The notes: generated from the sequence alone by a model not told the origin. A stretch of 64,000 bases of DNA from Propionimicrobium lymphophilum DSM 4903 (GCF_000423485.1 NZ_AUIB01000001.1:1-64000); one strand, 5' to 3'; positions 27,196-41,530 are shown, counted from the first letter of the stretch. Made by a program: numbers and translations.

Positions 27196-27333
27196 CGGCA
27201 GGCCAAATTTTTCTATAAATCTTTTTGCACCATCGGTGCAGATTACGCATATTCGACGCGGACAACGATTCGCTGAGCCTAACGTGTTACGAACAAGCAA
27301 TGAAGCTTGCAGAAACGTTTAGGAGGACAAAAC

Positions 27334-28380
27334 GTGTCGAAAATGAACGCAGTTGTTATGCATGGTGTCGACGACATCAGGCTAGAAGAAGTCGAAGCCC
27401 CGAAGCCCGGTCCCGGTGAGGCACTACTGAAGGTCGCTGCTTGTGGCGTTTGTGGTTCAGACCTTGACCGTATGTACAAGAAGGGCCCACACAAGCTTCC
27501 GCTAATTACTGGCCACGAATTTTCCGCTGTCGTAGAGGAGGTTGGCGAAGGAGTCACTTCCGTTAAAGCAGGAGATCATGTGACCGTCCCACCGATGCTT
27601 CCGTGCTTCAAGTGTGGGCCTTGCCAGCAGGGCCACTTCTCGCTTTGTGAAGACTACGATTACTATGGCTCGCGCCGTGACGGTGCCTATGCAGATTACG
27701 TCTGTGGGCCGGCAGATCTATTGCTGAAGGTGCCTGAAGATCTGGACCTGCGAGCGGCAGCCATGGTTGATCCCGCAGCTATCGCGCTGCACGCTATTCT
27801 TCGCACGAAGCTTACTATTGGATCTCGTGTTGCTGTTTCTGGTGGTGGCGGCCCGATCGGTCTGTTTGCTATCCAATGGGCTCGTCTGATGGGTGCTTCA
27901 GAGGTAGTGTCTATCGACGTTACGAAGGAAAAGATTCCGCTAGCTCTGGAAGCAGGCGCTGACAAGGCTGTTAGCGATTGGAAGGAGCTAGGTGACATCG
28001 GCGGTGGCTATGACGTCATCATCGAAACCTCTGGAGCGCGAGTTGTGCCCGACCTGGCAGTTTCTGTCATGGCGCGCCATGGTGAAGTAGTCCTAATCGG
28101 TATCCCGAACGCAGACATCACTATTTCCGATGCAAGCTGGGCGCGCTTGATGAGACTTGAAGGCGGAATCTTAGGATCCTGGAACTCCTTCTCTGCTCCG
28201 TTCCCTGGCCACGAATGGCGAACTACGGTGCAGAAGCTTCACTCTGGAGACCTCAAGTGGGAATTCATGATTACGCACGAATTGGGACTTGATGCTGTGG
28301 CGGAAACCATCAAGAAGATGTACAACCGTGAAATTCACAGCTCCAAGGTGATCTTCATGCCCGAAAAGACTCGTAAATAA
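27334..28380 (+). CDS. Zinc-dependent polyol-phosphate dehydrogenase (GatD-like)
   Basis: A 348-residue medium-chain dehydrogenase. Catalytic zinc ligands: Cys in GVCGSD, then GHEFS; structural zinc cysteines appear in MLPCFKCGPCQQGHFSLC; the nucleotide-binding motif is SGGGGPIGLFAIQWA (~residue 165). The late stretch LGSWNSFSAPFPGHEWRTT closely resembles galactitol-1-phosphate 5-dehydrogenase (GatD), so a sugar-alcohol phosphate is the probable substrate. GTG at 27334 is chosen because AGGAGG lies seven bases upstream; ATG 27343 is too far. It is the first gene of a four-gene, more A+T-rich cluster lacking its own transporter. Confidence 0.83.
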   Translation: MSKMNAVVMHGVDDIRLEEVEAPKPGPGEALLKVAACGVCGSDLDRMYKKGPHKLPLITGHEFSAVVEEVGEGVTSVKAGDHVTVPPMLPCFKCGPCQQGHFSLCEDYDYYGSRRDGAYADYVCGPADLLLKVPEDLDLRAAAMVDPAAIALHAILRTKLTIGSRVAVSGGGGPIGLFAIQWARLMGASEVVSIDVTKEKIPLALEAGADKAVSDWKELGDIGGGYDVIIETSGARVVPDLAVSVMARHGEVVLIGIPNADITISDASWARLMRLEGGILGSWNSFSAPFPGHEWRTTVQKLHSGDLKWEFMITHELGLDAVAETIKKMYNREIHSSKVIFMPEKTRK

Positions 28381-28385
28381 TAGTT

Positions 28386-29336
28386 ATGAAGCTTCCCAGC
28401 GAATTTCGCCGAGAGCAGGTCTTGAAGGCTGGAAGGCTTTATTTTCTTGAGCGAGAATCAACATCCCGCATTGCAGAGACGTTGGGCTGTTCAAGGTGGA
28501 CAGTCCGGCGTCTACTGCAAGAAGCCTATGAAGAGGGCTACGTGTCTATAGAGATCATTGATCCTTACGCACGTGTTGAAGAGCTTGAGAAAGAATTCGC
28601 TAAGCGGTTTTCACTTACTGAAACAATAGTCGTGAGAAATCGTCTTAAGCTCGACGACACCGTAACTGCCGTAGCCAACCAGACTGCAAAGTATCTAGCT
28701 AATTTACGCCCGATGCCTCAATTAGTTGGAGTCTCATGGGGCAGAACCTTGTGGAGAGTAGCAAAGCAACTCGAAGAAGGTTGGGCCGTAGACCCTATGA
28801 TCGTTCAACTAAATGGAGGGGTCGCCACCTTATCGGCCGCTCAATCGGTGCAGGAGACGATACTGGGCTTTGCGCAAAAATCAAACGGGAAAGCTAGAGG
28901 GCTGCCCAGCCCTGCAGTAGTTTCAAAACCTTCACTTGCATCAGCTCTTCGCGCTGATCCTGTGGTTGCTGATGTTCTAGGAATGGGGCGTCAAGCAGAC
29001 GTAGCTATTTTTTCTCTTGGTGCGCTGAGGTTCGATTCGGTTTTAGTCGAATCAGGGTGCATTACTAAAAATGAAGTGACTCGGCTAAGAGCAAAAGGCG
29101 GAGTCGGGGATATCCTCGGTCGTTTCATTAACGGTGTCGGGGAAATAGTTAGCGAAGAACTCGAATCCAGGACGATAGGCGTCGATTTGGAGGCGCTGAA
29201 GAAAATAAAAAAATCAATTGCTGTAGCCGTTGGTGAGAATAAAGCTTCAATAACTCGTGCAGCTTTAAAGGGTGGTTTTATGACCACTTTAATCACAGAC
29301 GAAAATACGGCTAAACAAGTTTTATCTGAGAGGTAA
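28386..29336 (+). CDS. SorC-family sugar-binding transcriptional regulator
   Basis: A 316-residue regulator with an N-terminal helix-turn-helix ([21 protein letters not shown], residues ~27-48) and a SorC/DeoR-type effector domain ([17 protein letters not shown], then [15 protein letters not shown]). SorC regulators respond to phosphorylated sugars and usually control the adjacent catabolic genes. It starts 5 bp after the dehydrogenase stop and ends 2 bp before deoC. The gene is clearly A+T-richer than the flanking glp and cob genes, supporting acquisition. Confidence 0.88.
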
Positions 29337-29338
29337 TA

Positions 29339-29980
29339 ATGTCCGGAGTACCCGCAAATTTAATTGACCACACTCTGTTGGCGCCAGAAGCCACCGCAGA
29401 AGATGTAAAAAAAATTATCGATGAGGCCGTCGAACTTGGAACTTATTCGGTATGTGTTTCGCCCAGTATGCTTCCAATTACCGTACCGGAAACGCTAAAA
29501 GTCGCTGCTGTATGTGGCTTCCCCAGCGGAGCGCATATCAGCGAGGTGAAGGCTCTTGAGGCTAAAAAAGCGGCCGAAAATGGCGCAAATGAAATCGACA
29601 TGGTGATCAATGTCGGAAAAGCCAAGGAACACGATTGGGAATACGTCACTTCCGACATTAAGGCGGTGCGTGATGCTTTGCCCAACGATGTAGTTCTCAA
29701 AGTCATTATTGAATCCGCTGTATTAACAGATGAGGAAATTGTTGAAGTTTGTGAATGCGCTAAGAAAGCAAATGCGGATTTTGTAAAAACTTCTACAGGT
29801 TTCCACAAAGCCGGTGGCGCAAGCGTAGAAGCTGTGAAATTAATGCGCGAAACGGTCGGCAAAGAAATGGGTGTGAAAGCATCGGGTGGAATTAGAGATG
29901 CAGAAACAGCCGAAAAGATGATTAATGCTGGCGCCAATAGGCTCGGCCTGTCTAGCTCTCGCGCGGTTCTAGGAAAATAA
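29339..29980 (+). CDS. deoC: Deoxyribose-phosphate aldolase family protein
   Basis: A 213-residue class I aldolase. Schiff-base Lys150 lies in FVKTSTGF, the second active-site lysine (Lys180) in VKASGGIR, and Asp87 in [10 protein letters not shown]. The family cleaves 2-deoxyribose-5-phosphate to glyceraldehyde-3-phosphate and acetaldehyde. Here it sits between a SorC regulator and a kinase with a polyol-phosphate dehydrogenase in place of nucleoside-salvage genes, so the physiological substrate may be a sugar phosphate made from a polyol. The gene is A+T-rich. Confidence 0.9.
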
Positions 29981-30011
29981 ACCAATTATCTATTAACAAC
30001 GAGGTTAAAAA

Positions 30012-31547
30012 ATGACTGATCAATTATTACTAGGCATAGACGTAGGAACGGGTGGAGTAAGGGTTGCTGCTGTTACCCCAGAGGGCGAAATGATCGCTAC
30101 GGCTTCAGTTGCCGTAGAGACATACACACCAAGGCCGGCTTGGGCTGAACAAAACCCTCAAGACTGGTGGGGTGGCTTGAAAGGCTCGTTGGCCGAATTG
30201 CTTGAAACTGTCTCGGCTGAACAAATCTGCGGTATCGCCGTCGATGGTACTTCCGCCACTGTTGTCGCCTGCGATAAGGACGGCGAACCCTTAAGGCCTG
30301 CATTGCTTTGGATGGATGTTAGGGCAGCTGACGAGGCAGAGAGGCTAACGAATACTGGCGATCCTGCACTTAAGTACGCTGGTATGCAGACTGTCTCCGC
30401 TGAATGGGGCATCCCGAAGCTGATGTGGCTCTCCAAGAATGAGCCAGAGGTATACGAGAAGGCTGAGGTATTCGCCGACTGTATTGACTGGATGAACTTC
30501 AAGCTCACCGGAGAGTGGGCGATGTCGATTTGTACGGCTACCTGTAAGTATTTCTACGATTCCAACTGGTCGGGTTGGCCTACTAACCTTTATGCAAAGG
30601 CAGGAATCCCTGACGCGTTAAGGAAACTTCCTCCGTCTGTTTTGAAGATGGGCGAGGTAGTTGGCGAGCTTAGCTCCAAGGCAGCTAGTGAACTAGGCCT
30701 TAAAGCTGGAATACCAGTCACTATGGGCGGCATCGATGCGCACGTTGGGGCTATTGGTCTAGGCGTTGTGGATGAAGGATCTTTGGCTCTGATCACAGGA
30801 TCCTCACACGTTATGCTTGGCCAGACCGATCAGGCAATCTATTCCCAGGGGATTTGGGGAGCGTACTTTGATGCGATTATCCCTGGACAGTACACGGTCG
30901 AGGCAGGCCAGATTTCTTCCGGTTCTGTGAATAACTGGTTTACGCATAAGTTCACCGTTGAGGCCCACAAGCACGGTGACGACTCTGCCAGTTTGTATAA
31001 CTACCTGAATGAGTTGGCAAAAGAAATCCCTATCGGATGTGATGGTGTAATCGCGCTCGATCACTTCCAAGGCAACCGTTCGCCATTCTCTAACCCCTAC
31101 TCTCGTGGCGCGTTTACAGGGTTGACTCTTTCTCACGGAGAAGGTCATTTGTATCGGGCAGTCTTAGAGTCTGTTTGTTACGGAACTAAGACAATTTTCG
31201 ACACATTCCGGGAAAAAGGATTCGACCCGGTAAAGGTCGTCGTATCTGGTGGCCCGACGAAATCAAGATTCTGGATGCAAATGCATGCCGACGTGACGGG
31301 CGTTCCAATGTTGTTCCCGAAGAACACTGAGGGCCCGCTTATGGGATGTTCGATTCTTGCGTCAATAGGTGCCGGCTTGCACGATGATATTGGCAGTGCT
31401 GCAAAGGCGATGGTGACTATGGCCGATTCGATCGAGCCAAACCCTGAAGCCACAAGCGAGTACGAGTTCTACCACAAACGCTATCTAGAGATATATGAAG
31501 CTTTAGCTCCTGTTAGCCGCAAGACGGCGCAGCATATTTCTGGGTAA
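30012..31547 (+). CDS. FGGY-family carbohydrate kinase, substrate unknown
   Basis: A 511-residue kinase with LLGIDVGTGGVRVAAV at the N-terminus, AVDGTSATVVACDKDG near residue 75, and VVVSGGPTKSRFWMQMHADVTG near residue 405. It is not GlpK-like and not close to the FGGY kinase at 10029; the pattern is nearest to ribulokinase/xylulokinase relatives. It is the last gene of the inserted cluster and follows deoC by 31 bp. Together with the GatD-like dehydrogenase and DeoC it suggests phosphorylation, oxidation and aldol cleavage of a polyol or deoxy-sugar. A terminator hairpin follows directly. Confidence 0.83.
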   Translation: MTDQLLLGIDVGTGGVRVAAVTPEGEMIATASVAVETYTPRPAWAEQNPQDWWGGLKGSLAELLETVSAEQICGIAVDGTSATVVACDKDGEPLRPALLWMDVRAADEAERLTNTGDPALKYAGMQTVSAEWGIPKLMWLSKNEPEVYEKAEVFADCIDWMNFKLTGEWAMSICTATCKYFYDSNWSGWPTNLYAKAGIPDALRKLPPSVLKMGEVVGELSSKAASELGLKAGIPVTMGGIDAHVGAIGLGVVDEGSLALITGSSHVMLGQTDQAIYSQGIWGAYFDAIIPGQYTVEAGQISSGSVNNWFTHKFTVEAHKHGDDSASLYNYLNELAKEIPIGCDGVIALDHFQGNRSPFSNPYSRGAFTGLTLSHGEGHLYRAVLESVCYGTKTIFDTFREKGFDPVKVVVSGGPTKSRFWMQMHADVTGVPMLFPKNTEGPLMGCSILASIGAGLHDDIGSAAKAMVTMADSIEPNPEATSEYEFYHKRYLEIYEALAPVSRKTAQHISG

Positions 31548-31990: not shown

Positions 31991-32116
31991 CTTTCAATTC
32001 GTTCTTGGTTAACGCCCTCGCGAAAAGGGCCAGAAACTTGGAAGGAAAATGGGTCATAACTCTTTTGGTGACCGTAAATCTTTGTTCCTGCGCACAACCT
32101 TGAATTGCGGGTAGCG

Positions 32117-33163
32117 ATGGCGAAAAAATTTCGTAGGCTGCCGGTCGCGCCAATCGTCGTTGCTTTAGTGATAGTAGCCATAGTCAGTGCGCTCTTCTCG
32201 CTGACGCTTGGGGCAGAAAAAGTTCCCGTCGAAGACGTCTTCGAAATCGTCAAGGCACGATTAACCGGTACAGCCACAACATCGCCGTTCGACACGATCA
32301 TTTGGGAACTGCGTCTACCCAGGGCTTTGCTTTCGCTGTTGGTGGGGGCGGGGCTAGCGATCGCGGGCGCGGCAATGCAGACGCTCGTCCAAAATCCGCT
32401 CGCAGACCCGTACCTGCTGGGCATCTCGTCGGGTGCTTCCGTCGGTGCCACCGCGGTAATCGTACTCGGCGTGTTCAGCAGCTTCGGTGTCTACGCTCTT
32501 TCGCTAGGCGCGATGGTGGGTGCGATCACGGCTAGCGCCGCGGTTTATTTCATCGCCCAAGCCCAAGGCGGCCTGACGCCGCTGAGGATGGTGCTCGCGG
32601 GTGTCGTGATGTCGTCGGCATTTAGCGCGCTTGCCTCCTTCATGGTCTTTCTTTCCGACGACAATCGCGCGGCTAACTCCGTGATGTTCTGGATGCTCGG
32701 TTCGGTTGCTGGCGCCACCTGGGAAAAGCTGATCGTGCCGGTCGTCGCCGTAGCGATTTCTTTGGTAGCGCTGATGCTAATTTCTTCTTGGATGGACGCC
32801 CTGATGACCGGTCCTTCAACTGCGGCAGCCCTGGGCATACGGGTTGGCGCTATGCGCAACGGCCTGTTCATCGGGTCCAGCGTGCTGATTGGTGTGCTGG
32901 TTGCTGTTGCAGGTGGTATCGGTTTCGTCGGCCTCATCATCCCGCACGCATCCAGGATGATCGTCGGCGCTCTCCATAAACGGATGTTGCCGGTGTGCGC
33001 GGCTGGTGGCGCGGTCTTCCTGCTTTGGGTTGACGTCATTTCGCGAGTCGTCGCCAGGCCTCAGGAAATGCCACTCGGCGTGGTTACTGGTGTTGTCGGA
33101 GCTCCGCTGTTCCTGTTCTTGATGGGCCGGCGCAGCTACGCGTTCGGAAGTAGGGACGCATGA
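32117..33163 (+). CDS. btuC: BtuC/FecD-like ABC permease for corrinoids
   Basis: A ~348-residue permease of the FecCD family with about ten membrane helices. Family hallmarks are RLPRALLSLLVGAGLAIAGAAMQ, NPLADPYLLGISSGASVG, and GGIGFVGLIIPHASR (the ATPase-contacting loop). The riboswitch upstream makes cobalamin or cobinamide the likely cargo and not a siderophore. ATG 32117 is preferred; a TTG at 32105 is an alternative. It overlaps the ATPase gene by four bases. Confidence 0.85.
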   Translation: MAKKFRRLPVAPIVVALVIVAIVSALFSLTLGAEKVPVEDVFEIVKARLTGTATTSPFDTIIWELRLPRALLSLLVGAGLAIAGAAMQTLVQNPLADPYLLGISSGASVGATAVIVLGVFSSFGVYALSLGAMVGAITASAAVYFIAQAQGGLTPLRMVLAGVVMSSAFSALASFMVFLSDDNRAANSVMFWMLGSVAGATWEKLIVPVVAVAISLVALMLISSWMDALMTGPSTAAALGIRVGAMRNGLFIGSSVLIGVLVAVAGGIGFVGLIIPHASRMIVGALHKRMLPVCAAGGAVFLLWVDVISRVVARPQEMPLGVVTGVVGAPLFLFLMGRRSYAFGSRDA

Positions 33164-33990
33164 GCAAGGTAGACCTGGAAAAGATCCAAGACGAAGATTA
33201 TCTGAGGAGACGCTGCTTCATTAGCGTCCGTGGCGTGGCTGCCGCGGTCGGCGGTTACGTCGCCGTCAAGCACGTCAGCTTCGACGTGCCCTACGGCACG
33301 AAGCTGGCGCTGGTGGGCACGAACGGTGCTGGCAAGTCGACGCTGCTTCGTGCGCTCGCGGGCATCAACCCGGCAGTGGAGGGCATAGTCCGGATCGGCG
33401 AGCGGGACGTCACCGCGTACGCCCCGAAGACGCGCGCCCGAATTATCTCTTTCGTCGGTCAGGAGGAAAGCCCGCCGGCAGCCCTAACCCTAGGCGAGAT
33501 GGTCAACCTGGGCAGGATTCCGCACCGCGCGCCCTGGTCGGTGGACGTCCACAGGGATAGGGACATCGTGGTCAGCGCGCTCGCTCAGGTGGGCCTGGAT
33601 GACCGTATCGATTCTGCCTGCGATCAGCTGTCTGGCGGTGAACGTCGTAGAGCAATGATCGCGCGTGGTCTGGCGCAGGGTTCCCCGATCTTCATGCTCG
33701 ACGAGCCGACTAACCACTTGGATATCGCTTGGCAGCTGAAGCTCCTGAAACTGCTGACTACCCTCGAATGCACTGTCGTCGCAGCTATCCACGACCTCGA
33801 TCTAGTGCTGCGCAACTTCGACATGGTTGCAGTCATGCACGCCGGCTCGATGATCGCGTTTGGCGAGCCGAAAGACGTCATCAACACCCAACTTATGGAC
33901 GAAGCTTTCAGGGTTGAGGCCATTCAGGCGCCCAACCCTGTGACGCATGAAACACATCTGCTAATTAGCAAAGGAAAGGAAGAAAAATGA
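33160..33990 (+). CDS. btuD: BtuD/FecE-like ABC ATPase
   Basis: A 276-residue ATPase with Walker A GTNGAGKST (~residue 50), signature LSGGERRRAMIARGL, Walker B IFMLDEPTNHLD and switch AAIHDLDL. It carries a ~22-residue N-terminal extension rich in charged residues before the domain starts. It overlaps the permease upstream and the binding-protein gene downstream by four bases each, so all three are translated together under the riboswitch. Confidence 0.87.
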   Translation: MSKVDLEKIQDEDYLRRRCFISVRGVAAAVGGYVAVKHVSFDVPYGTKLALVGTNGAGKSTLLRALAGINPAVEGIVRIGERDVTAYAPKTRARIISFVGQEESPPAALTLGEMVNLGRIPHRAPWSVDVHRDRDIVVSALAQVGLDDRIDSACDQLSGGERRRAMIARGLAQGSPIFMLDEPTNHLDIAWQLKLLKLLTTLECTVVAAIHDLDLVLRNFDMVAVMHAGSMIAFGEPKDVINTQLMDEAFRVEAIQAPNPVTHETHLLISKGKEEK

Positions 33991-35075
33991 AAATGCGGAA
34001 GGGACTCCCGGCGCTGGCGCTGGGCCTAACGCTGCTCGCCACCGGCTGTGGCGGAGCTAGCACCTCCGGTAGCGGCGACTCTAGCGCCGAGGCCGGCAAG
34101 CTCACCTTGGAAAACTGTGGCAAAAAGGTGGAGTACACGGTTCCGGTCACCAAGCTGATGGCTAACGACGGCAACATCATCTCCATCGCTCTGGCTGCTG
34201 GCGCCAAGGACCAGCTCACAGCGGTCACTAGCTTGCAGCGTGACGAGGGCGTCTTGAAGCTCAAGTACGGTGAGGACGTCATCAATGGCCTAAACCAGGT
34301 TTCGCCCGAGTACATGAACCTTGAGAACATCGTTGCTGCCGACCCGCAGGTGGTTTTCGCCGGCTATGGCTACGGCTTCAGTGATGAAAAGGGCACCGAC
34401 CCCGATTCTCTGGCGAAGCGGGGCTACCTCACCTACACGCTCAGCGAGGCTTGCCGCACTGGTGAAGGCAGCAAGCGTGGCACCATGAGCCCGTGGGAAG
34501 CTCTGGATGCTGATATTCGCAATATCGGTGCGATGACCGGCAACAAGGCCAAGGCCGACAAGGTTGCCGACGAGATCACCAAGCGTCGCGAAGAGATCGA
34601 GAAGCTGCCGCAGCCGGACAAGAAGCCGACTGCTTTCCTCTTCGACTCCGCTTCCGACACCGTTTTCTCTAGCGGCAAGTTCGGCGCCCCGCAGGCAATG
34701 ATGGATTCTGCGGGCATTAAGAACGTCCTTGAAGACGTCGATGACACCTGGACGAAGGTCAGCTGGGAGCGTCTAGCTTCCGCTGATCCTGACATCATCT
34801 TCTTCGTCGACTACCCGCCGCAGACCATCGAGGAAAAGATTCAGGCTCTCGAATCCAACCCGGCCTCCAAGAACCTGAAGGCGGTGAAGGAGAAGCGCTA
34901 CGTCAACCTGCCGTACGCAATGTGGTGCTCTGGGCCGCTAAACGTGGAGGGCGCGGAGTACATTCGCATGGCGATGGAGCACTTCGGCCTGGCTCCCAAG
35001 ACCGACATCAAGTCGGACCTGGACCTGACCAAGCTAGATTCGCTGGCCGGGAACGAGTGGCTGAAGCAAAAGTAA
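33987..35075 (+). CDS. btuF: BtuF-like corrinoid-binding lipoprotein
   Basis: A 362-residue binding protein. The signal peptide ends in the lipobox LATGC (Cys24), followed by a Ser/Gly linker, so it is a lipid-anchored extracytoplasmic protein. The body has the class III two-lobe pattern (NIVAADPQVVFAGYGYG; SWERLASADPDIIFFVDYP) of BtuF/FhuD proteins. It is last in the riboswitch operon; a strong hairpin follows. Confidence 0.85.
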   Translation: MKMRKGLPALALGLTLLATGCGGASTSGSGDSSAEAGKLTLENCGKKVEYTVPVTKLMANDGNIISIALAAGAKDQLTAVTSLQRDEGVLKLKYGEDVINGLNQVSPEYMNLENIVAADPQVVFAGYGYGFSDEKGTDPDSLAKRGYLTYTLSEACRTGEGSKRGTMSPWEALDADIRNIGAMTGNKAKADKVADEITKRREEIEKLPQPDKKPTAFLFDSASDTVFSSGKFGAPQAMMDSAGIKNVLEDVDDTWTKVSWERLASADPDIIFFVDYPPQTIEEKIQALESNPASKNLKAVKEKRYVNLPYAMWCSGPLNVEGAEYIRMAMEHFGLAPKTDIKSDLDLTKLDSLAGNEWLKQK

Positions 35076-35088
35076 GCACATCTTGATT

Positions 35089-35115
35089 AACGCGCCCCAC
35101 ATTGTGGGGCGCGTT
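35089..35115 (+). terminator. Terminator of the btu operon
   Basis: AACGCGCCCCAC (35089-35100) pairs with GTGGGGCGCGTT (35104-35115), loop ATT, then TTATTTTTC. Confidence 0.88.
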
Positions 35116-35397: not shown

Positions 35398-36876
35398 ATG
35401 ACACAAACGTCCCATCCGACCTTAAACAATAAGCGGCCATTCTCGCTTAGAGACTGCTTCGGCTACATGTTCGGTGACTTCGGAAACGACTTCACCTTCA
35501 TCTTGCAGTCCTCGTTCTTCATGATTTTCTACACCAACGTGGTGGGTATCAATCCGGCGCACGTCGGCTTCCTGCTGCTTGGCGCCCGAATCCTCGACGC
35601 CTTCACCGACGTCGGTATGGGAATCATTGTAGACCGTCTGCCGGTGAAGAAACCCGGCTACAAGTTCAAGCGCTGGATTCTATACATGGCGGTTCCGGTG
35701 ACGATCGCTTCGGCGCTGATGTATATGTCTTTCGTCGGCAATTGGGATAGCTACACGGCGAAGCTCTTGTGGATGTGCGTGACCTACTTCTTGTGGGGCT
35801 CGATCTGCTACACGGCCATCAATATTCCCTACGGCTCGATGGCTTCGGTCATCTCTCCTGACCCAGACGACCGCTCGAAACTATCCGTGTTCCGTTCCAC
35901 CGGCGGCCAGCTCGCCTCGCTCGTGATTCAGGCGGTTCTGCCGGTTGTCGTCTACACCAAAACCGCGGAGAGTATCTCGGTTATGGTCGGCGAGAAGATG
36001 ATGCTGGCGGCTATCGTCTGCTCCATCCTCGGTGTGGTCTGCTATGCACTCTGCTTCATCAACGTTGAAGAGCGTGTCGTATCCGAGCAGAAGGCTAAGG
36101 ACGAGGGTGGCCAGGGCGTCGGCCAGATGCTTGCTTCCCTGACCCACAACCGTGGGCTGTTGACGCTGGTTTTGGCGGCACTCCTGTTGCTGGTCTCCAT
36201 GATGTTCCTGATGGGCATCGTCGGCTATATCTGCCTGGCGTACTTCAATGACGGTCAACTGCAGTCGCCCGCGTCGATCCTGGCTATCGTTCCTGCCTTC
36301 ACACTGATCGTTCTAGCCCCGATTCTCGGTAAGAAATTCGGCAAGGCCGAGGTCTGCTCGATTGCCATGCTCATCGGTGGCGGCACGCTGCTGACGGCAT
36401 ATTTCCTGAAGATCGATGTCGGCAACCCTTGGCTGTGGATCACGCTCTACGCCGTCGCGATGTTCTGCATCAACGTGTTCAACTACCTGGTTTGGGCCTT
36501 CATCACCGACGTGATCGACTTGCAGGATGTGCAGACAGGCTCCCGCGACGATGGCACCGTTTACGCCGTCTACTCTTGGGCGCGAAAACTCGGTCAGGCC
36601 CTCGCAGGATGGTTGCTCGGAATGGCGCTTAGCTGGGTTGGTTTCGATGCCGTCGCGGCGAAGGACGGCATCGCGCAGAGTCAGGAAGCCCTGGACGGCA
36701 TCTACGCCTTGGCGAATGTTCTGCCCGGCATTGGCTGCGTTCTGGTTGCGGTAGTTCTGCTGTTCCTGTACCCGCTGAAGAAGAAGCGCGTGACGAAGAA
36801 CGTGGAGATCCTCGAGGCTCGTCGTCGAGGTGAGAGGCACGTGGATGACCCGGTGGCCCGCGCAACGAACAACTAA
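35398..36876 (+). CDS. GPH-family sugar:cation symporter
   Basis: A 492-residue, 12-helix transporter of the glycoside-pentoside-hexuronide family (MelB type). It shows FSLRDCFGYMFGDFGNDF at the N-terminus, the LLGARILDAFTDVGMGIIVDR motif carrying the cation-site aspartates, and YNIPYGSMASVIS-like and VFNYLVWAFITDVIDLQDVQTG stretches. It heads a cluster of two TIM-barrel and two Gfo/Idh/MocA proteins and probably imports the substrate of that pathway. There is a gap of ~115 bp before the next gene. Confidence 0.88.
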   Translation: MTQTSHPTLNNKRPFSLRDCFGYMFGDFGNDFTFILQSSFFMIFYTNVVGINPAHVGFLLLGARILDAFTDVGMGIIVDRLPVKKPGYKFKRWILYMAVPVTIASALMYMSFVGNWDSYTAKLLWMCVTYFLWGSICYTAINIPYGSMASVISPDPDDRSKLSVFRSTGGQLASLVIQAVLPVVVYTKTAESISVMVGEKMMLAAIVCSILGVVCYALCFINVEERVVSEQKAKDEGGQGVGQMLASLTHNRGLLTLVLAALLLLVSMMFLMGIVGYICLAYFNDGQLQSPASILAIVPAFTLIVLAPILGKKFGKAEVCSIAMLIGGGTLLTAYFLKIDVGNPWLWITLYAVAMFCINVFNYLVWAFITDVIDLQDVQTGSRDDGTVYAVYSWARKLGQALAGWLLGMALSWVGFDAVAAKDGIAQSQEALDGIYALANVLPGIGCVLVAVVLLFLYPLKKKRVTKNVEILEARRRGERHVDDPVARATNN

Positions 36877-36903
36877 AACACAGAATAGATAATTAACATG
36901 AAA

Positions 36904-36939
36904 AGTGCCCGCTAGTTTTCACATGAATTGGTGGGCACT
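36904..36939 (+). other. Weak hairpin between symporter and isomerase genes
   Basis: AGTGCCCGC (36904-36912) pairs with GTGGGCACT (36931-36939) with one G-U pair. No T run follows, so it is more likely a processing or partial attenuation site than a terminator. Confidence 0.35.
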
Positions 36940-36992
36940 GTCTATCGAAAATCATTTTTCTAAAGTTTAGAAGATGATCAGAGGAGATGAGT

Positions 36993-37838
36993 ATGGCCTT
37001 CACGTTAACCGGTTTCGCAGATGAAATCGCTCACGATCTTGGTGAACAAATTGAGCTGTTAAACAAGCTCGATATCAAACACGTGGAATTTAGAAGCGCA
37101 TGGGGAACAAAGGTTCTTGACCTTGACGATGAGGAATTAAAAAAAGCCAAGAAAATGCTTGACGAAAATGGCATCAAGCTCTCTTCAGTCGGCTCCGATA
37201 TCGGCAAAATCAAGATCACCGACCCATTCGAAGATCACCTAAAGCGTGCTGCACATTCGGTCGAGGTTGCAAAGTTTTTCGGCGCGCCCTACATCCGCAT
37301 GTTCTCGTTCTTCATGCCCGAGGGCGAAGACCCGGATAGTTACCGCGATGAGGTGCTTTCGCGAACTCGCGAGATGGTAAAGCTCGCCGAGGCCGGCGGC
37401 GTAACCATGCTGCATGAAAACGAGAAAGACATTTATGGTGACATTCCGCGTCGGGTCATCGACCTGATCACCAGCATAGATTCGCCCAACTACCGCGCAA
37501 TCTTCGACCCAGCCAACTACGTGCAGTGTCACGTAAAGCCGTTCGACGAGGCCTTCGAACAAGTTCGCCCCTACACCGACTATATCCACTGCAAAGACGC
37601 CAAGGCCGACACAATGAAGCTCGGTGTCGAAGAGGTCGTACCCTGCGGGGAGGGTGACGGCCAAGTGTGCGAAGTCGTTGCCGCGCTGAACGAGGACGGC
37701 TACAACGGTTTCTTCTCCATCGAGCCGCACCTCGGCCAGTTCGACGCGTTCGGTGGCTTGTGCGGCCCCGAGCTGTGGACGAAGGCATACGAAGCCCTGA
37801 CCGGCATCTTTAAGGAGCAGGGAATCGAATGGAACTAA
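36993..37838 (+). CDS. Xylose-isomerase-like TIM-barrel protein (sugar isomerase/epimerase family)
   Basis: A 281-residue AP-endonuclease-2/xylose-isomerase-like barrel. Putative metal ligands appear in order: Glu in TMLHENEKD, Asp in IFDPANY, His in YIHCKDAK, and Glu in FFSIEPH. Members act on keto-sugars, inososes, or as beta-eliminating or hydrating enzymes in 3-keto-glycoside pathways. The ATG at 36993 has GAGGAG six bases before it and is preferred over ATG 36987. It overlaps the following oxidoreductase gene by ten bases. Confidence 0.82.
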   Translation: MAFTLTGFADEIAHDLGEQIELLNKLDIKHVEFRSAWGTKVLDLDDEELKKAKKMLDENGIKLSSVGSDIGKIKITDPFEDHLKRAAHSVEVAKFFGAPYIRMFSFFMPEGEDPDSYRDEVLSRTREMVKLAEAGGVTMLHENEKDIYGDIPRRVIDLITSIDSPNYRAIFDPANYVQCHVKPFDEAFEQVRPYTDYIHCKDAKADTMKLGVEEVVPCGEGDGQVCEVVAALNEDGYNGFFSIEPHLGQFDAFGGLCGPELWTKAYEALTGIFKEQGIEWN

Positions 37839-38836
37839 GAGCCGCACTAATCGGTTGCGGCGACGTCTCCACAATCCATTTCGAGGCGTTCGACGCCATC
37901 GACTACATCAAACTGGTGGCCGTGTGCGACACCGACCCTAATCGGCTTGCTGCGGCCGTCGAAAGGACTGGCGCCAAAGGCTATTCGAGCGTCGAGGAGT
38001 TGCTTTCTGACAAGCAAAACTTCGACGTGGTTCACGTTACGACCCCGCACTTCGACCACGCCGACACGGTGGTTGCCTGCCTAGAAGCGGGCGTGAACGT
38101 CATCATGGAAAAGCCGCTCGCCCACACGCTCGCCGACGGCCAGCGCATCATCGACGCGGCTGACAATTCCAGCGCGAAGATTGGCGTCTGCTTGCAAAAC
38201 CGCTATAACGTTTCTAGTCAGCAGATGCGCCGGGTGCTCGACGAGGGTCTTCTGGGCGACATCACAGGCGGGTTCGCGCAGGTGGTCTGGACCCGCTCGC
38301 TGGCCTACTACGAGCGCAGGTTATGGCGTGGCACCTGGCAGGGGTCTGGTGGTGGCGTCCTCATCAATCAGGCGCTGCACACTCTCGACTTGCTGCAGTG
38401 GTTCCTGGGACCCGTCACCAAGCTGAGGGGGCGCGCCCAGACCCTGAAATTTGCCGACGTCATCGAGGTGGAGGACACCGCGAGCGCGTTCTTGACGCAC
38501 GAAAGCGGCGTGCAGAGCTCGTTCTACGCCACTCTGACCCCGCCAATTGATCATCCCGTCGAGATCGAGATCATCGGTACGAAAGGCCGTGCGGTCATTC
38601 GGGACGGGCTGACCGTCTACGGCGACGACGGTTCTTTGACCACGTGTCCAGAACGCAAAGCACCCAGCAGCGGGCGGGCGTATTGGGGAGTTTCCCACGA
38701 AGTCTTCATCAGAGACTTCTACGAAAGCCTGGACGACCCGGAACCATTCTGGATTGGCCCACGCGAGGCAATGGAATCACTGCGGATTCTCAAAGAAATC
38801 TATGCGCAATCGCCAGAGATGGCCGCGCACAACTAA
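37829..38836 (+). CDS. Gfo/Idh/MocA-family NAD(P)-dependent oxidoreductase (1)
   Basis: A 335-residue sugar dehydrogenase/reductase with an N-terminal Rossmann domain (LRAALIGCGDVSTIHFEAF), the EKP motif (IMEKPLAHT, ~residue 93) that holds the catalytic lysine, and LINQALHTLDLLQW carrying the histidine of the active site. Such enzymes oxidise or reduce C3 of sugars or inositol. It overlaps the TIM-barrel gene upstream and is followed 19 bp later by a second member of the same family, suggesting an oxidising and a reducing step in one pathway. Confidence 0.85.
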   Translation: MELRAALIGCGDVSTIHFEAFDAIDYIKLVAVCDTDPNRLAAAVERTGAKGYSSVEELLSDKQNFDVVHVTTPHFDHADTVVACLEAGVNVIMEKPLAHTLADGQRIIDAADNSSAKIGVCLQNRYNVSSQQMRRVLDEGLLGDITGGFAQVVWTRSLAYYERRLWRGTWQGSGGGVLINQALHTLDLLQWFLGPVTKLRGRAQTLKFADVIEVEDTASAFLTHESGVQSSFYATLTPPIDHPVEIEIIGTKGRAVIRDGLTVYGDDGSLTTCPERKAPSSGRAYWGVSHEVFIRDFYESLDDPEPFWIGPREAMESLRILKEIYAQSPEMAAHN

Positions 38837-38855
38837 AAGCGAACAAGGAGAAAAT

Positions 38856-40019
38856 ATGGCTGAAAAGGTTCGCCTAGGAATCATCGGCGTTGGAGCCGAA
38901 GGCGGAATGTACGCGCAGTTCATCGACGACGGTCGCGTCCCCAACATGGAGATCGCTGGCATCTGCGATGTCGACGAGTCGAAGAAGACACTCGCTGACA
39001 AGTACGGCGTGCCCTTCTACACCGACTATAAAGAAATGGTGGATTCGGGCGAGGTCGATGCGGTCGTCACCACGGTTCCGCATTACCTGCACCCGGAGAT
39101 GGGCATCTACGCGCTCTACCATGGCGTGCACGCGCTGCTGGAGAAGCCGCTGGGCGTCTACACCAAGCAGGCCAGAGAGGTCATCGACTTCGCCAAAACC
39201 AAGCCCGATTTGGTGTTCGGCGTGTTCTTCAATCAGCGCACCAATCAGCTCTACAAGGACATCAAGGCCATCCTTGATTCTGGTGAGCTCGGCGCGCTGC
39301 GTCACACCTCGTGGCTGATCACAAACTGGTGGCGTCCGCAGGGTTACTACAACCAATCCGAGTGGCGGGCTACCTGGGGTGGCGAGGGCGGCGGCGTCCT
39401 TGTCAATCAGGCTCCCCATCAGCTTGATCTGTGGCAGTGGATCTGCGGCATCCCGAAGAGCGTCTTCGCGAAGTGTCAGTACGGTTTCAAGCGCGACATT
39501 GCGGTTGAGGACGAGGTCAACGCGCTCGTCGATTTCGGCAACGGCGCAACCGGCACGTTCATCACCTGCACCCACGACATGTTCGGCACCGACCGCCTGG
39601 AGATCCTCTGCGACAAGGGCCGCATCCTCGTCGAGGACTCTCACAAACTCACCATCACCCGCCTGGCCGAGCCCGAGCAGGAGTGGAGCAAGAGCCTCGG
39701 CATGGAGGAGGTAGGCAAGCTGTTCAAGGGCGAGCTGGACGTCTCCGAGGTGCAGACGGTCGAGGAGCGCGACTACGGCTCGGTTTGGGGCGAGCAGCAC
39801 TGCGACGTCATGAAGAACTTCGCAGACGCAGTTCTCAACGGTGCCGAGCTTTTGGCGCCAGGCTCTGACGGCATCAACGGCGTGCGCCTGGCCAACGCGA
39901 TTCACCTGTCCTCTTGGACCGGCAAGGAAGTGGACATGGTCAACTTCGACGAGGAGGCCTATCTGGCCGAGCTGAACAAGCGCATCGAGCAAGAGGGCAA
40001 GTTCGATACCCGCTCCTAG
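38856..40019 (+). CDS. Gfo/Idh/MocA-family NAD(P)-dependent oxidoreductase (2)
   Basis: A 387-residue paralogue of the preceding protein, with the Rossmann start VRLGIIGVGAEGGMYAQF, EKP motif LLEKPLGVYT, and active-site stretch VNQAPHQLDLWQW. It is longer at the C-terminus. The frame is open upstream through the previous gene, but AAGGAG precedes the ATG at 38856. The two oxidoreductases are clearly different in sequence, which fits separate substrates and not a recent duplication. The stop is followed after 26 bp by the second TIM-barrel gene with a GGAGG site. Confidence 0.85.
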   Translation: MAEKVRLGIIGVGAEGGMYAQFIDDGRVPNMEIAGICDVDESKKTLADKYGVPFYTDYKEMVDSGEVDAVVTTVPHYLHPEMGIYALYHGVHALLEKPLGVYTKQAREVIDFAKTKPDLVFGVFFNQRTNQLYKDIKAILDSGELGALRHTSWLITNWWRPQGYYNQSEWRATWGGEGGGVLVNQAPHQLDLWQWICGIPKSVFAKCQYGFKRDIAVEDEVNALVDFGNGATGTFITCTHDMFGTDRLEILCDKGRILVEDSHKLTITRLAEPEQEWSKSLGMEEVGKLFKGELDVSEVQTVEERDYGSVWGEQHCDVMKNFADAVLNGAELLAPGSDGINGVRLANAIHLSSWTGKEVDMVNFDEEAYLAELNKRIEQEGKFDTRS

Positions 40020-40045
40020 AGCGGCTGGAGCTAGGAGGTTAGGAA

Positions 40046-40894
40046 ATGGCTGTACTTGGCGTTCAAATGATGATGCTCAAGGACGAGGTTGCCGAAAAGG
40101 GCATGTTCGCCGTCCTGCAGAAGATTGCCGAGATGGATCTGCACGCCGTCGAGGTTTCGCAGATCCCGATGGACGAGAAGAACACTGCAGATCTGGAGCG
40201 CGGCATCAAGGAGCTAGGCGTTCAGGTCGGTGCCTTATCGGTCGGCTTGAAGGCGGGCCCAACCACCACCGGCGATGCGCTGGATCCGGATTACGACAAG
40301 ATCGTCGCCGACTGCCGTCGCCTGGGTTGCCGCTACCTGCGCATAGGCATGATGCCGTTCACCGCGATGGTTTCCAAGGAGGCCTGCGAGGCTTGGGCCG
40401 CGGAGGTGGAGCCGTGGGCGAAAAAGCTCAAGGAAGACGGCATCACGCTGTGCTATCACAACCACCACGTCGATCTGGTTAAGTTCGACGGCGAACGCAT
40501 CTTCGACATCGTGCGACGCGTCGCACCGAGCCTGGAGTTCGAGGTGGATTTGCACTGGGTGCACCGCGGTGGCATGGCTCCGCTGGACATGCTCAAGGAG
40601 TATTCGGGCGTGTGCAGGCTGATCCACGTCAAGGACTACCGCGTGGTGCCGTTGCCGCAGGAGGCTGTCGACCTGATGAGTAATGGCGATATCGAGCGCG
40701 GTTTTGAGATGTTCCTGAATATCGTGCAGTTTGCTGAGGTTGGCCAGGGCAACATGAACTGGCCGGAGCTGCTGCCGGCTGCCGAGAAGGCAGGGGCTGA
40801 CTTCCTGTTCATCGAGCAAGACATGCTCTATGGACGTGACGTCTACGACTGCCTGAGGGATTCCCGCGAATACCTGAAGTCGATCGGCTACTAA
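40046..40894 (+). CDS. Xylose-isomerase-like TIM-barrel protein (2)
   Basis: A 282-residue TIM barrel of the sugar phosphate isomerase/epimerase group. Likely metal or substrate ligands: CYHNHHVDL (~residue 133), EVDLHWVHRGG (~170), HVKDYR (~193), and FLFIEQD (~253). It is only distantly similar to the barrel at 36993. As the last gene of the cluster it could supply the hydration/hydrolysis counterpart to an eliminating partner. A very strong hairpin follows. Confidence 0.82.
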   Translation: MAVLGVQMMMLKDEVAEKGMFAVLQKIAEMDLHAVEVSQIPMDEKNTADLERGIKELGVQVGALSVGLKAGPTTTGDALDPDYDKIVADCRRLGCRYLRIGMMPFTAMVSKEACEAWAAEVEPWAKKLKEDGITLCYHNHHVDLVKFDGERIFDIVRRVAPSLEFEVDLHWVHRGGMAPLDMLKEYSGVCRLIHVKDYRVVPLPQEAVDLMSNGDIERGFEMFLNIVQFAEVGQGNMNWPELLPAAEKAGADFLFIEQDMLYGRDVYDCLRDSREYLKSIGY

Positions 40895-40934
40895 ACAACA
40901 AAGATGCGTCCCTCGGGGCGCATCTTTGTTGTTT
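40893..40934 (+). terminator. Terminator of the GPH/Gfo/TIM-barrel cluster
   Basis: Perfect 16-bp stem (40893-40908 with 40919-40934) ending in TTGTTGTTT. The remnant antitoxin coding sequence begins directly at its downstream edge. Confidence 0.85.
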
Positions 40935-41142
40935 AGCTGAGCCAAGATCGCTGGAGCGGCAGGCCGATGAAGAGATACGCTCTATTAACGCCCAGGCTAT
41001 ACCTCTCATTGATATAGCTACGCATCCTAGAAAAATTAACGCCGACGTCTTTTATCAGCGAGTGAAGGATTTAAGGGTTGAGATCGGTGGTTCGTTCGAA
41101 ACCGAAGAAATCGATCAGCTGAAGAGGGCCGGGCGGTCATGA
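40935..41142 (+). pseudogene. 5'-truncated antitoxin remnant (VapB/FitA-like)
   Basis: An open frame without a start reads ...EPRSLERQADEEIRSINA... and ends EEIDQLKRAGRS, stop at 41140-41142. The first part resembles the RSLExxxREIL helix of ribbon-helix-helix antitoxins and the tail resembles antitoxin C-termini. The DNA-binding N-terminus is missing, replaced by the terminator hairpin of the upstream operon. The stop overlaps the toxin start (ATGA). Confidence 0.6.
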
Positions 41143-41530
41143 TAGTCGTCGATACGAATATTCTTGCCTACCTATTTCTTCCGGGCGAGTTTAGTGAGTC
41201 GGCAGGGAATTTGTTGCTGGAAGATAGCGAGTGGGCAGCTCCCGTGCTGTGGAAGAGCGAGTTCAGGAACATTCTTGTGGGTTAGTTCCGTAAAGGGCTT
41301 TTGTCTTCTGCACAATCTCGGCGGGTGCAGAAAATGGCGGAAGAATTGCTCCACGAAAATGAATTTTGGTTCCCAGCGACGATGTTCTTGAGTTGGCTGA
41401 GAGCAGTACGTGCAGCGCTTACGACTGCGAATTTGTTGCAGTGGCAAAAAGTTTAGGTGTTCGTTTGGTGACGATGAATAAACAAATACTTAGAGAATTC
41501 CCGAAGGTGGCTAGTCCGTTATTGGCGTAA
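41139..41530 (+). pseudogene. VapC-like PIN-domain toxin, disrupted by a stop and a frameshift
   Basis: Begins MIVVDTNILAYLFLPGEFSESA with the first PIN-domain acidic residue Asp5 and the Glu of WKSEFRNIL, then hits an in-frame TAG at 41283-41285. Reading resumes in the same frame (FRKGLLSSAQSRR...ENEFWFPA) and then needs a +1 shift near 41380 to continue as DVLELAES...SAYDCEFVAVAKSLGVRLVTMNKQILREFP, which holds the remaining PIN acidic residues, and ends at TAA 41528. Two independent lesions show that the toxin is dead. Confidence 0.85.

What the first reader, a model, noticed from the sequence alone, without database searches (positions are those of the whole stretch)
35398..40894. Candidate oxidation-elimination-hydration-reduction pathway for an unusual sugar
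A GPH symporter followed by TIM barrel, Gfo/Idh/MocA, Gfo/Idh/MocA, TIM barrel gives precisely two oxidoreductases and two xylose-isomerase-like lyase/hydratase candidates. This is the enzyme composition described for levoglucosan breakdown (LgdA, LgdB1, LgdB2, LgdC) and related to 3-keto C-glycoside cleavage (Dgp). The members are well diverged from each other, as expected for separate steps. No kinase or isomerase for ordinary sugars is included.
Basis: partly seen in the sequence, partly recalled or inferred. Interest (0 to 1): 0.66.

Follow-up and report, generated by a model that had tools for sequence, protein, structure and literature searches.

The report
Glucuronide-cleaving oxidation–elimination gene cassette
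A five-gene bacterial operon very probably imports sugar-acid conjugates (glucuronides) and cuts them without a classical hydrolase, by oxidising, eliminating, adding water and reducing; it is a new member of a recently described kind of pathway and may stand in for beta-glucuronidase in a genome where none of the usual type was found.

Summary
Window 35398-40894 carries a GPH symporter, a TIM barrel (TIM1), two Gfo/Idh/MocA oxidoreductases (OX1, OX2) and a second TIM barrel (TIM2), all on the + strand, with terminators on both sides. The oxidation-elimination-hydration-reduction reading is well supported, but the proposed substrates (levoglucosan, C-glycosides) are not. OX2 is 58% identical to the solved P2B11 glucuronide-3-dehydrogenase (8TDI). 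TIM2 is nearest to the 3-keto-beta-glucopyranoside-1,2-lyases AL1/BT1 and the O-glycoside beta-eliminase AtOGE, and keeps AtOGE's metal ligands and catalytic histidine. In relatives, glucuronate isomerase (uxaC) lies near OX2 in 61 of 100 loci, spanning two phyla, against 0 of 80 loci for most control genes. The Arthrobacter loci checked also encode a glucuronide transporter and beta-glucuronidase above curated cut-offs. The window's genome has uxaC and a fructuronate-reductase-like gene elsewhere, no GH2 enzyme, no UxuA or KDPG aldolase, and a LarA-type hexonate-epimerase homologue. Best reading: a non-hydrolytic glucuronide-cleaving cassette feeding glucuronate catabolism. The roles of TIM1 (hydratase) and OX1 (3-ketoglucuronate reductase) are inferred. 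No activity was tested. It is a new member of a known kind.

The parts
35089..35115 (+). terminator-like hairpin (12 pairs, then T-rich tail) that separates the cassette from the upstream ABC transporter operon
   Evidence: sequence
35398..36876 (+). GPH-family cation symporter, probable glucuronide importer
   Evidence: Pfam MFS_2 E 3e-71; TIGR00792 above cut-off, next best model glucuronide transporter at 214.6 of 528 bits; 64-66% identical GPH next to the cassette in L009, L123, L139, L140
36987..37838 (+). TIM1, AP_endonuc_2 barrel; [quoted passage not shown]
   Evidence: Pfam; AlphaFold2 model pLDDT 93.4; fold nearest to sugar epimerases, AtHYD hydratase 8RO4 at rank 38; conserved E144/E146, D174, E246
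37829..38836 (+). OX1, Gfo/Idh/MocA oxidoreductase; inferred 3-keto-glucuronate reductase
   Evidence: best PDB match 3Q2I E 5e-51; EKP at 94-96 and NQ..H..D motif at 180-187 conserved in 74 sequences
38856..40019 (+). OX2, Gfo/Idh/MocA oxidoreductase; glucuronide 3-dehydrogenase
   Evidence: 8TDI P2B11 glucuronide-3-dehydrogenase, 470.9 bits, 57.7% over 383 aligned residues
40046..40894 (+). TIM2, AP_endonuc_2 barrel; 3-keto-glycoside 1,2-lyase (beta-eliminase)
   Evidence: nearest PDB: 8BVK AtOGE and 8TCD/8TCR/8TCT lyases AL1/BT1; H138, H140, E166, D168, H194, E257 = AtOGE H132, H134, E161, D163, H189, E233
40891..40936 (+). hairpin of 21 pairs directly behind TIM2, probable terminator
   Evidence: -35.9 kcal/mol, z -9.7

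Best explanation
The cassette imports O-glucuronides (GPH symporter) and cleaves them in four steps without a classical glycosidase. OX2 oxidises C3 of the glucuronosyl group with NAD+. TIM2, a Mn-type lyase, takes the C2 proton and expels the aglycone, leaving a 2-hydroxy-3-keto-glycal uronate. TIM1 adds water to give 3-ketoglucuronate. OX1 reduces this to glucuronate and regenerates NAD+. Glucuronate then goes to UxaC and a fructuronate-reductase-like enzyme encoded elsewhere in the genome (contig C2). Since UxuA and KDPG aldolase were not found, mannonate probably passes through a LarA-type 2-epimerase to gluconate and, after phosphorylation, through Gnd into the pentose phosphate pathway. 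Shown here: gene order, homology, catalytic residues, neighbourhood. Inferred: all activities, the division of labour between OX1/OX2 and TIM1/TIM2, and the lower route.
For: OX2 is 57.7% identical over 383 residues to 8TDI, named P2B11 glucuronide-3-dehydrogenase. TIM2's best structural matches are the 3-keto-beta-glucopyranoside-1,2-lyases AL1 and BT1 and AtOGE; every AtOGE metal ligand and catalytic His134 is conserved (residues from PMC10628242). uxaC lies in 61 of 100 loci, median 2.5 kb from OX2, in 21 named genera of Bacillota and Actinomycetota; nine of eleven control proteins hit 0 of 80 loci. In 198 family genomes 44 of 49 with OX2 have uxaC against 59 of 149 without (Fisher 2e-10, phylogeny not corrected). 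Arthrobacter loci with OX2 carry a GPH that passes the glucuronide transporter cut-off (645 and 596 of 528 bits); one of them was tested for beta-glucuronidase and passes that cut-off too (873 of 544). Own genome: UxaC above cut-off, fructuronate-reductase-like gene beside it, no UxuA, no KDPG aldolase, LarA homologue, LarC, Gnd next to uxaC. OX1's closest solved relative 3Q2I is, from own knowledge, WlbA, which oxidises C3 of a UDP-linked uronic acid.
Against: No enzyme was assayed. In the window's own genome uxaC is on another contig, not in the cassette. The window's GPH is below the glucuronide-transporter cut-off (214.6 of 528). TIM1's role rests on exclusion: its fold matches generic sugar epimerases, and its third metal ligand is His in the near relatives but Gln in most others. 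The LarA homologue is far below the curated hexonate-epimerase cut-off (150 of 500) and no gluconokinase was sought. Some relatives keep OX2 without TIM2 (L133, L134, L137, L142).
Confidence: 0.78

Rival explanations
1. Same stepwise mechanism but for a neutral sugar conjugate (levoglucosan, an O-glucoside or a C-glucoside).
For: Gene composition equals that of the lgd operon and of the A. tumefaciens operon. TIM2 is related to glucoside lyases.
Against: Levoglucosan dehydrogenase model 63 and 53 of 650 bits; DgpA is far weaker than 8TDI (51 against 471 bits for OX2); TIM2 has His, not the Glu of C-glycoside lyases, at the first metal ligand; neighbours in relatives are glucuronate genes.
Confidence: 0.1
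2. Inositol or inosose catabolism (IolG/IolE-like enzymes).
For: IolG is among the top NCBIfam models for both oxidoreductases and IolE the only one for TIM2.
Against: All are far below cut-off (85-109 of 355; 24 of 290); much better characterised matches exist; no iolB/C/D/J in the cassette.
Confidence: 0.04
3. The cassette acts on glucuronides, but OX1 and TIM1 are not the reductase and hydratase: OX2 runs both redox steps, and OX1 with TIM1 form a second oxidase/lyase or epimerase pair for other anomers or uronides.
For: Some loci have OX2 and TIM2 without a TIM1 homologue in the fetched stretch. OX1's nearest solved relative acts as an oxidase on a uronic acid (3Q2I; function from own knowledge). 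TIM1's fold also matches epimerases, including a 3-keto-glucoside 4-epimerase, 6WN6.
Against: The lgd and A. tumefaciens systems use a separate hydratase and reductase, and the four genes travel together in both phyla.
Confidence: 0.25

Closest known systems
P2B11 glucuronide-3-dehydrogenase (PDB 8TDI) and the stepwise glycosidase pathway (Nasseri et al., Nature 2024, doi 10.1038/s41586-024-07574-y; text not available here, content from own knowledge)
   Same: OX2 is 57.7% identical over 383 residues; TIM2 is nearest in fold to its lyases AL1 and BT1.
   Different: Different lineage (Propionibacteriaceae); TIM1 and OX1 have no close solved counterpart; whether P2B11 has the same four genes could not be read here.
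Agrobacterium tumefaciens AtOGE/AtHYD operon (PMC10628242)
   Same: Elimination by a TIM barrel with identical metal ligands and catalytic His; two barrels and a Gfo oxidoreductase.
   Different: First oxidation there is by a flavoenzyme (GlycDH); substrate is a glucoside; TIM1 is not clearly AtHYD.
Levoglucosan pathway LgdA-LgdB1-LgdB2-LgdC (PMC7676230)
   Same: Same four-step chemistry and family composition.
   Different: OX1 and OX2 fail the levoglucosan dehydrogenase model by a wide margin; neighbours are uronate genes; symporter instead of ABC transporter.
C-glycoside deglycosidases DgpA-C / DfgA-B
   Same: Gfo/Idh/MocA 3-oxidation followed by Mn lyase.
   Different: His instead of Glu at the first metal ligand; small subunit not found, though that control was uninformative.
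Thermotoga-type hexuronate to gluconate route with GntE (PMC7583248; discussed in PMC6978723)
   Same: UxaC and a fructuronate-reductase-like gene, a LarA-type epimerase homologue, Gnd beside uxaC, no KDPG branch found.
   Different: The LarA homologue belongs near group 18 (putative hexonate epimerase), not tested; genes are scattered.

Membership tests
Stepwise 3-keto (oxidation-elimination) glucuronide cleavage, P2B11 type | Glucuronide 3-dehydrogenase orthologue | tested here: met
   8TDI 470.9 bits, 57.7% identity over 383 residues; next best PDB match 93.5 bits
Stepwise 3-keto (oxidation-elimination) glucuronide cleavage, P2B11 type | 3-keto-glycoside 1,2-lyase with AtOGE-type metal site and catalytic His | tested here: met
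[quoted passage not shown]
   TIM1 is a second barrel; AtHYD is only one of many similar folds
Stepwise 3-keto (oxidation-elimination) glucuronide cleavage, P2B11 type | Reductase for the 3-keto sugar acid | tested here: inconclusive
   OX1 keeps the catalytic motifs; nearest solved 3Q2I
Stepwise 3-keto (oxidation-elimination) glucuronide cleavage, P2B11 type | Cleavage of glucuronides in vitro | not testable with these tools
   needs purified enzymes
Levoglucosan pathway (Lgd) | LgdA above the curated levoglucosan dehydrogenase cut-off | tested here: not met
   63.1 and 53.1 of 650 bits
C-glycoside deglycosidase (Dgp/Dfg) | Glu at the first metal ligand of the lyase | tested here: not met
   TIM2 His138 aligns with AtOGE His132, which is Glu in C-glycoside lyases
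C-glycoside deglycosidase (Dgp/Dfg) | Small subunit (PF19906) | tested here: inconclusive
   no match in the genome, but no control genome rang either
Inositol catabolism (Iol) | IolG and IolE above curated cut-offs | tested here: not met
   IolG 85.5 and 109.2 of 355; IolE 24.4 of 290
GPH glucuronide transporter (UidB) | Score above NF007353 cut-off | tested here: not met
   214.6 of 528 bits; relatives' GPH in Arthrobacter loci do pass

The most novel reading that the evidence does not exclude
This organism degrades glucuronides by a wholly non-classical route: no hydrolytic beta-glucuronidase, cleavage by the 3-keto elimination cassette, and catabolism of the released glucuronate through UxaC, a fructuronate reductase and a LarA-type nickel epimerase to gluconate and the pentose phosphate pathway, with no KDPG branch.
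Probability: 0.4. Interest if true: 0.6.

Novelty: new member of a known kind. Interest (0 to 1): 0.42.

Why it matters
Glucuronides are the main form in which animals excrete drugs, hormones and bilirubin, and their cleavage by bacteria is usually predicted from beta-glucuronidase (GH2) genes alone. A widespread cassette that does the same job by oxidation and elimination would be missed by such surveys. The link to uxaC found here in two phyla gives an independent, testable argument for the substrate and a gene-context rule for finding further members.

Tried and rejected
Levoglucosan, C-glycoside and inositol assignments were tested against curated models and rejected. The C-glycoside small-subunit search was uninformative because no control rang. 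The Nature 2024 paper on the stepwise pathway is not held and searches for P2B11 or 8TDI found no usable text, so its content is from own knowledge apart from PDB titles. Fold search did not single out a hydratase for TIM1. A search for an operator shared by the cassette and the uxaC region gave only 9-base matches, not above what I would expect by chance. ManD as a substitute for UxuA: the two MR_MLE_C hits look like MenC (L091 lies beside a menD-like ORF; own reading) and, not examined, an enolase.

Full report
What is there. OX2 should be read from ATG 38856. TIM1 and OX1 overlap by 10 bp; OX1-OX2 and OX2-TIM2 gaps are 19 and 26 bp. The block is closed off by a terminator-like hairpin at 35089-35115 and a 21-pair hairpin at 40891-40936. 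The two oxidoreductases are the only Gfo/Idh/MocA genes found in the 2.04 Mb genome.

What the enzymes are. OX2 matches the solved P2B11 glucuronide-3-dehydrogenase (8TDI) with 470.9 bits; the next best solved protein scores 93.5. Identity is 57.7% over 383 aligned residues. TIM2 is nearest in sequence to AtOGE (8BVK) and to 8TCD, 8TCS and 8TCT. A confident AlphaFold2 model (pLDDT 96.3) has the 3-keto-beta-glucopyranoside-1,2-lyases AL1 and BT1 as its top matches and AtOGE close behind. AtOGE's metal ligands His132, Asp163, His189 and Glu233 and its catalytic His134 (PMC10628242) correspond to TIM2 His138, Asp168, His194, Glu257 and His140. All are invariant in 27 aligned relatives and at least 97% conserved in 83. 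C-glycoside lyases have Glu in place of His132, so TIM2 is of the O-glycoside type. OX1's nearest solved relative is 3Q2I; from own knowledge this is WlbA, a 3-dehydrogenase of a nucleotide-linked uronic acid. OX1 and OX2 both keep the EKP and NQ..H..D motifs. TIM1 is a different barrel subfamily whose conserved Glu, Asp and Glu resemble a sugar-epimerase metal site; its role is assigned by exclusion.

What the neighbours say. OX2 homologues were fetched from 80 genome contigs without regard to context and 20 stretches came from same-family genomes. Glucuronate isomerase lies in 61 of the 100 stretches, a median of 2.5 kb from OX2, and in 21 named genera of Bacillota and Actinomycetota. Nine of eleven unrelated control proteins from the same genome hit none of the 80; the two exceptions are FGGY sugar kinases (8 and 6 loci). 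A fructuronate-reductase-like gene is in 40 of the 100. Two Arthrobacter loci carry a GPH symporter above the glucuronide transporter cut-off, and one of these, examined further (L054), has TIM1-OX1, an ABC transporter, TIM2-OX2, LacI, UxaC, the fructuronate-reductase-like gene, beta-glucuronidase (872.8 of 544 bits) and that symporter in a row. Across 198 family genomes, 44 of 49 with OX2 have uxaC against 59 of 149 without; relatedness was not corrected for. In the closest relative, L123, the whole five-gene cassette stands next to uxaC, the fructuronate-reductase-like gene and a LarA homologue. These facts point to glucuronides as substrate, independently of the PDB name.

The rest of the route in this genome. 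UxaC is above its curated cut-off, with a LacI regulator and a fructuronate-reductase-like gene, and Gnd next door. UxuA and KDPG aldolase were not found although control genomes rang. A LarA homologue, best matched by the putative hexonate epimerase model but below its cut-off (150 of 500), and LarC are present. LarA-type enzymes interconvert D-mannonate and D-gluconate (PMC7583248, PMC11770544), and such a link to the pentose phosphate pathway was proposed for Thermotoga (PMC6978723). The lower route is therefore inferred as UxaC, fructuronate reductase, LarA-type epimerase, a kinase not identified, and Gnd. No GH2 enzyme was found (control rang), so the usual beta-glucuronidase is missing; other glucuronidase families were not searched.

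How it most likely works. Uptake by the symporter; C3 oxidation by OX2; beta-elimination of the aglycone by TIM2; hydration by TIM1; reduction by OX1, which makes the sum redox-neutral and equal to a hydrolysis. Steps 1 to 3 rest on orthology or residues; the hydration and reduction steps are inferred by analogy with the Lgd and A. tumefaciens systems.

Verdict. The kind of system is known; this is a further member, with a gene-context argument for its physiological role and a genome in which it may be the main glucuronide-cleaving route.

Noticed in passing
window 40940-41530 (+): Remnant of a VapBC-like toxin-antitoxin pair directly behind the cassette terminator: a PIN-type reading frame starting at 41140 carries an in-frame TAG (own reading of the sequence).
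   Followed up: no
window 32105-35075: FecCD/BtuCD-type ABC importer (permease, ATPase, binding protein) whose best models for all three parts are the putative F420-0 transporter, below cut-off; it sits close to cobalamin genes (CbiC, CbiJ).
   Followed up: partly
window 27307-31547: Cluster of a polyol-dehydrogenase-like enzyme, SorC/DeoR-type regulator, deoxyribose-phosphate aldolase and an FGGY kinase that fits no curated kinase cut-off.
   Followed up: no
own genome, C1:469187-469684 (L143:772-2094) and C1:82488-83756: LarA homologue nearest to a putative nickel-dependent hexonate epimerase, and LarC whose two halves match as separate pieces; with UxuA and KDPG aldolase missing this suggests a mannonate-to-gluconate bypass.
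   Followed up: partly
L133, L134, L137, L142: Loci with an OX2 homologue of 61-67% identity but no TIM2 in the fetched stretch, so OX2 also occurs in other settings.
   Followed up: no
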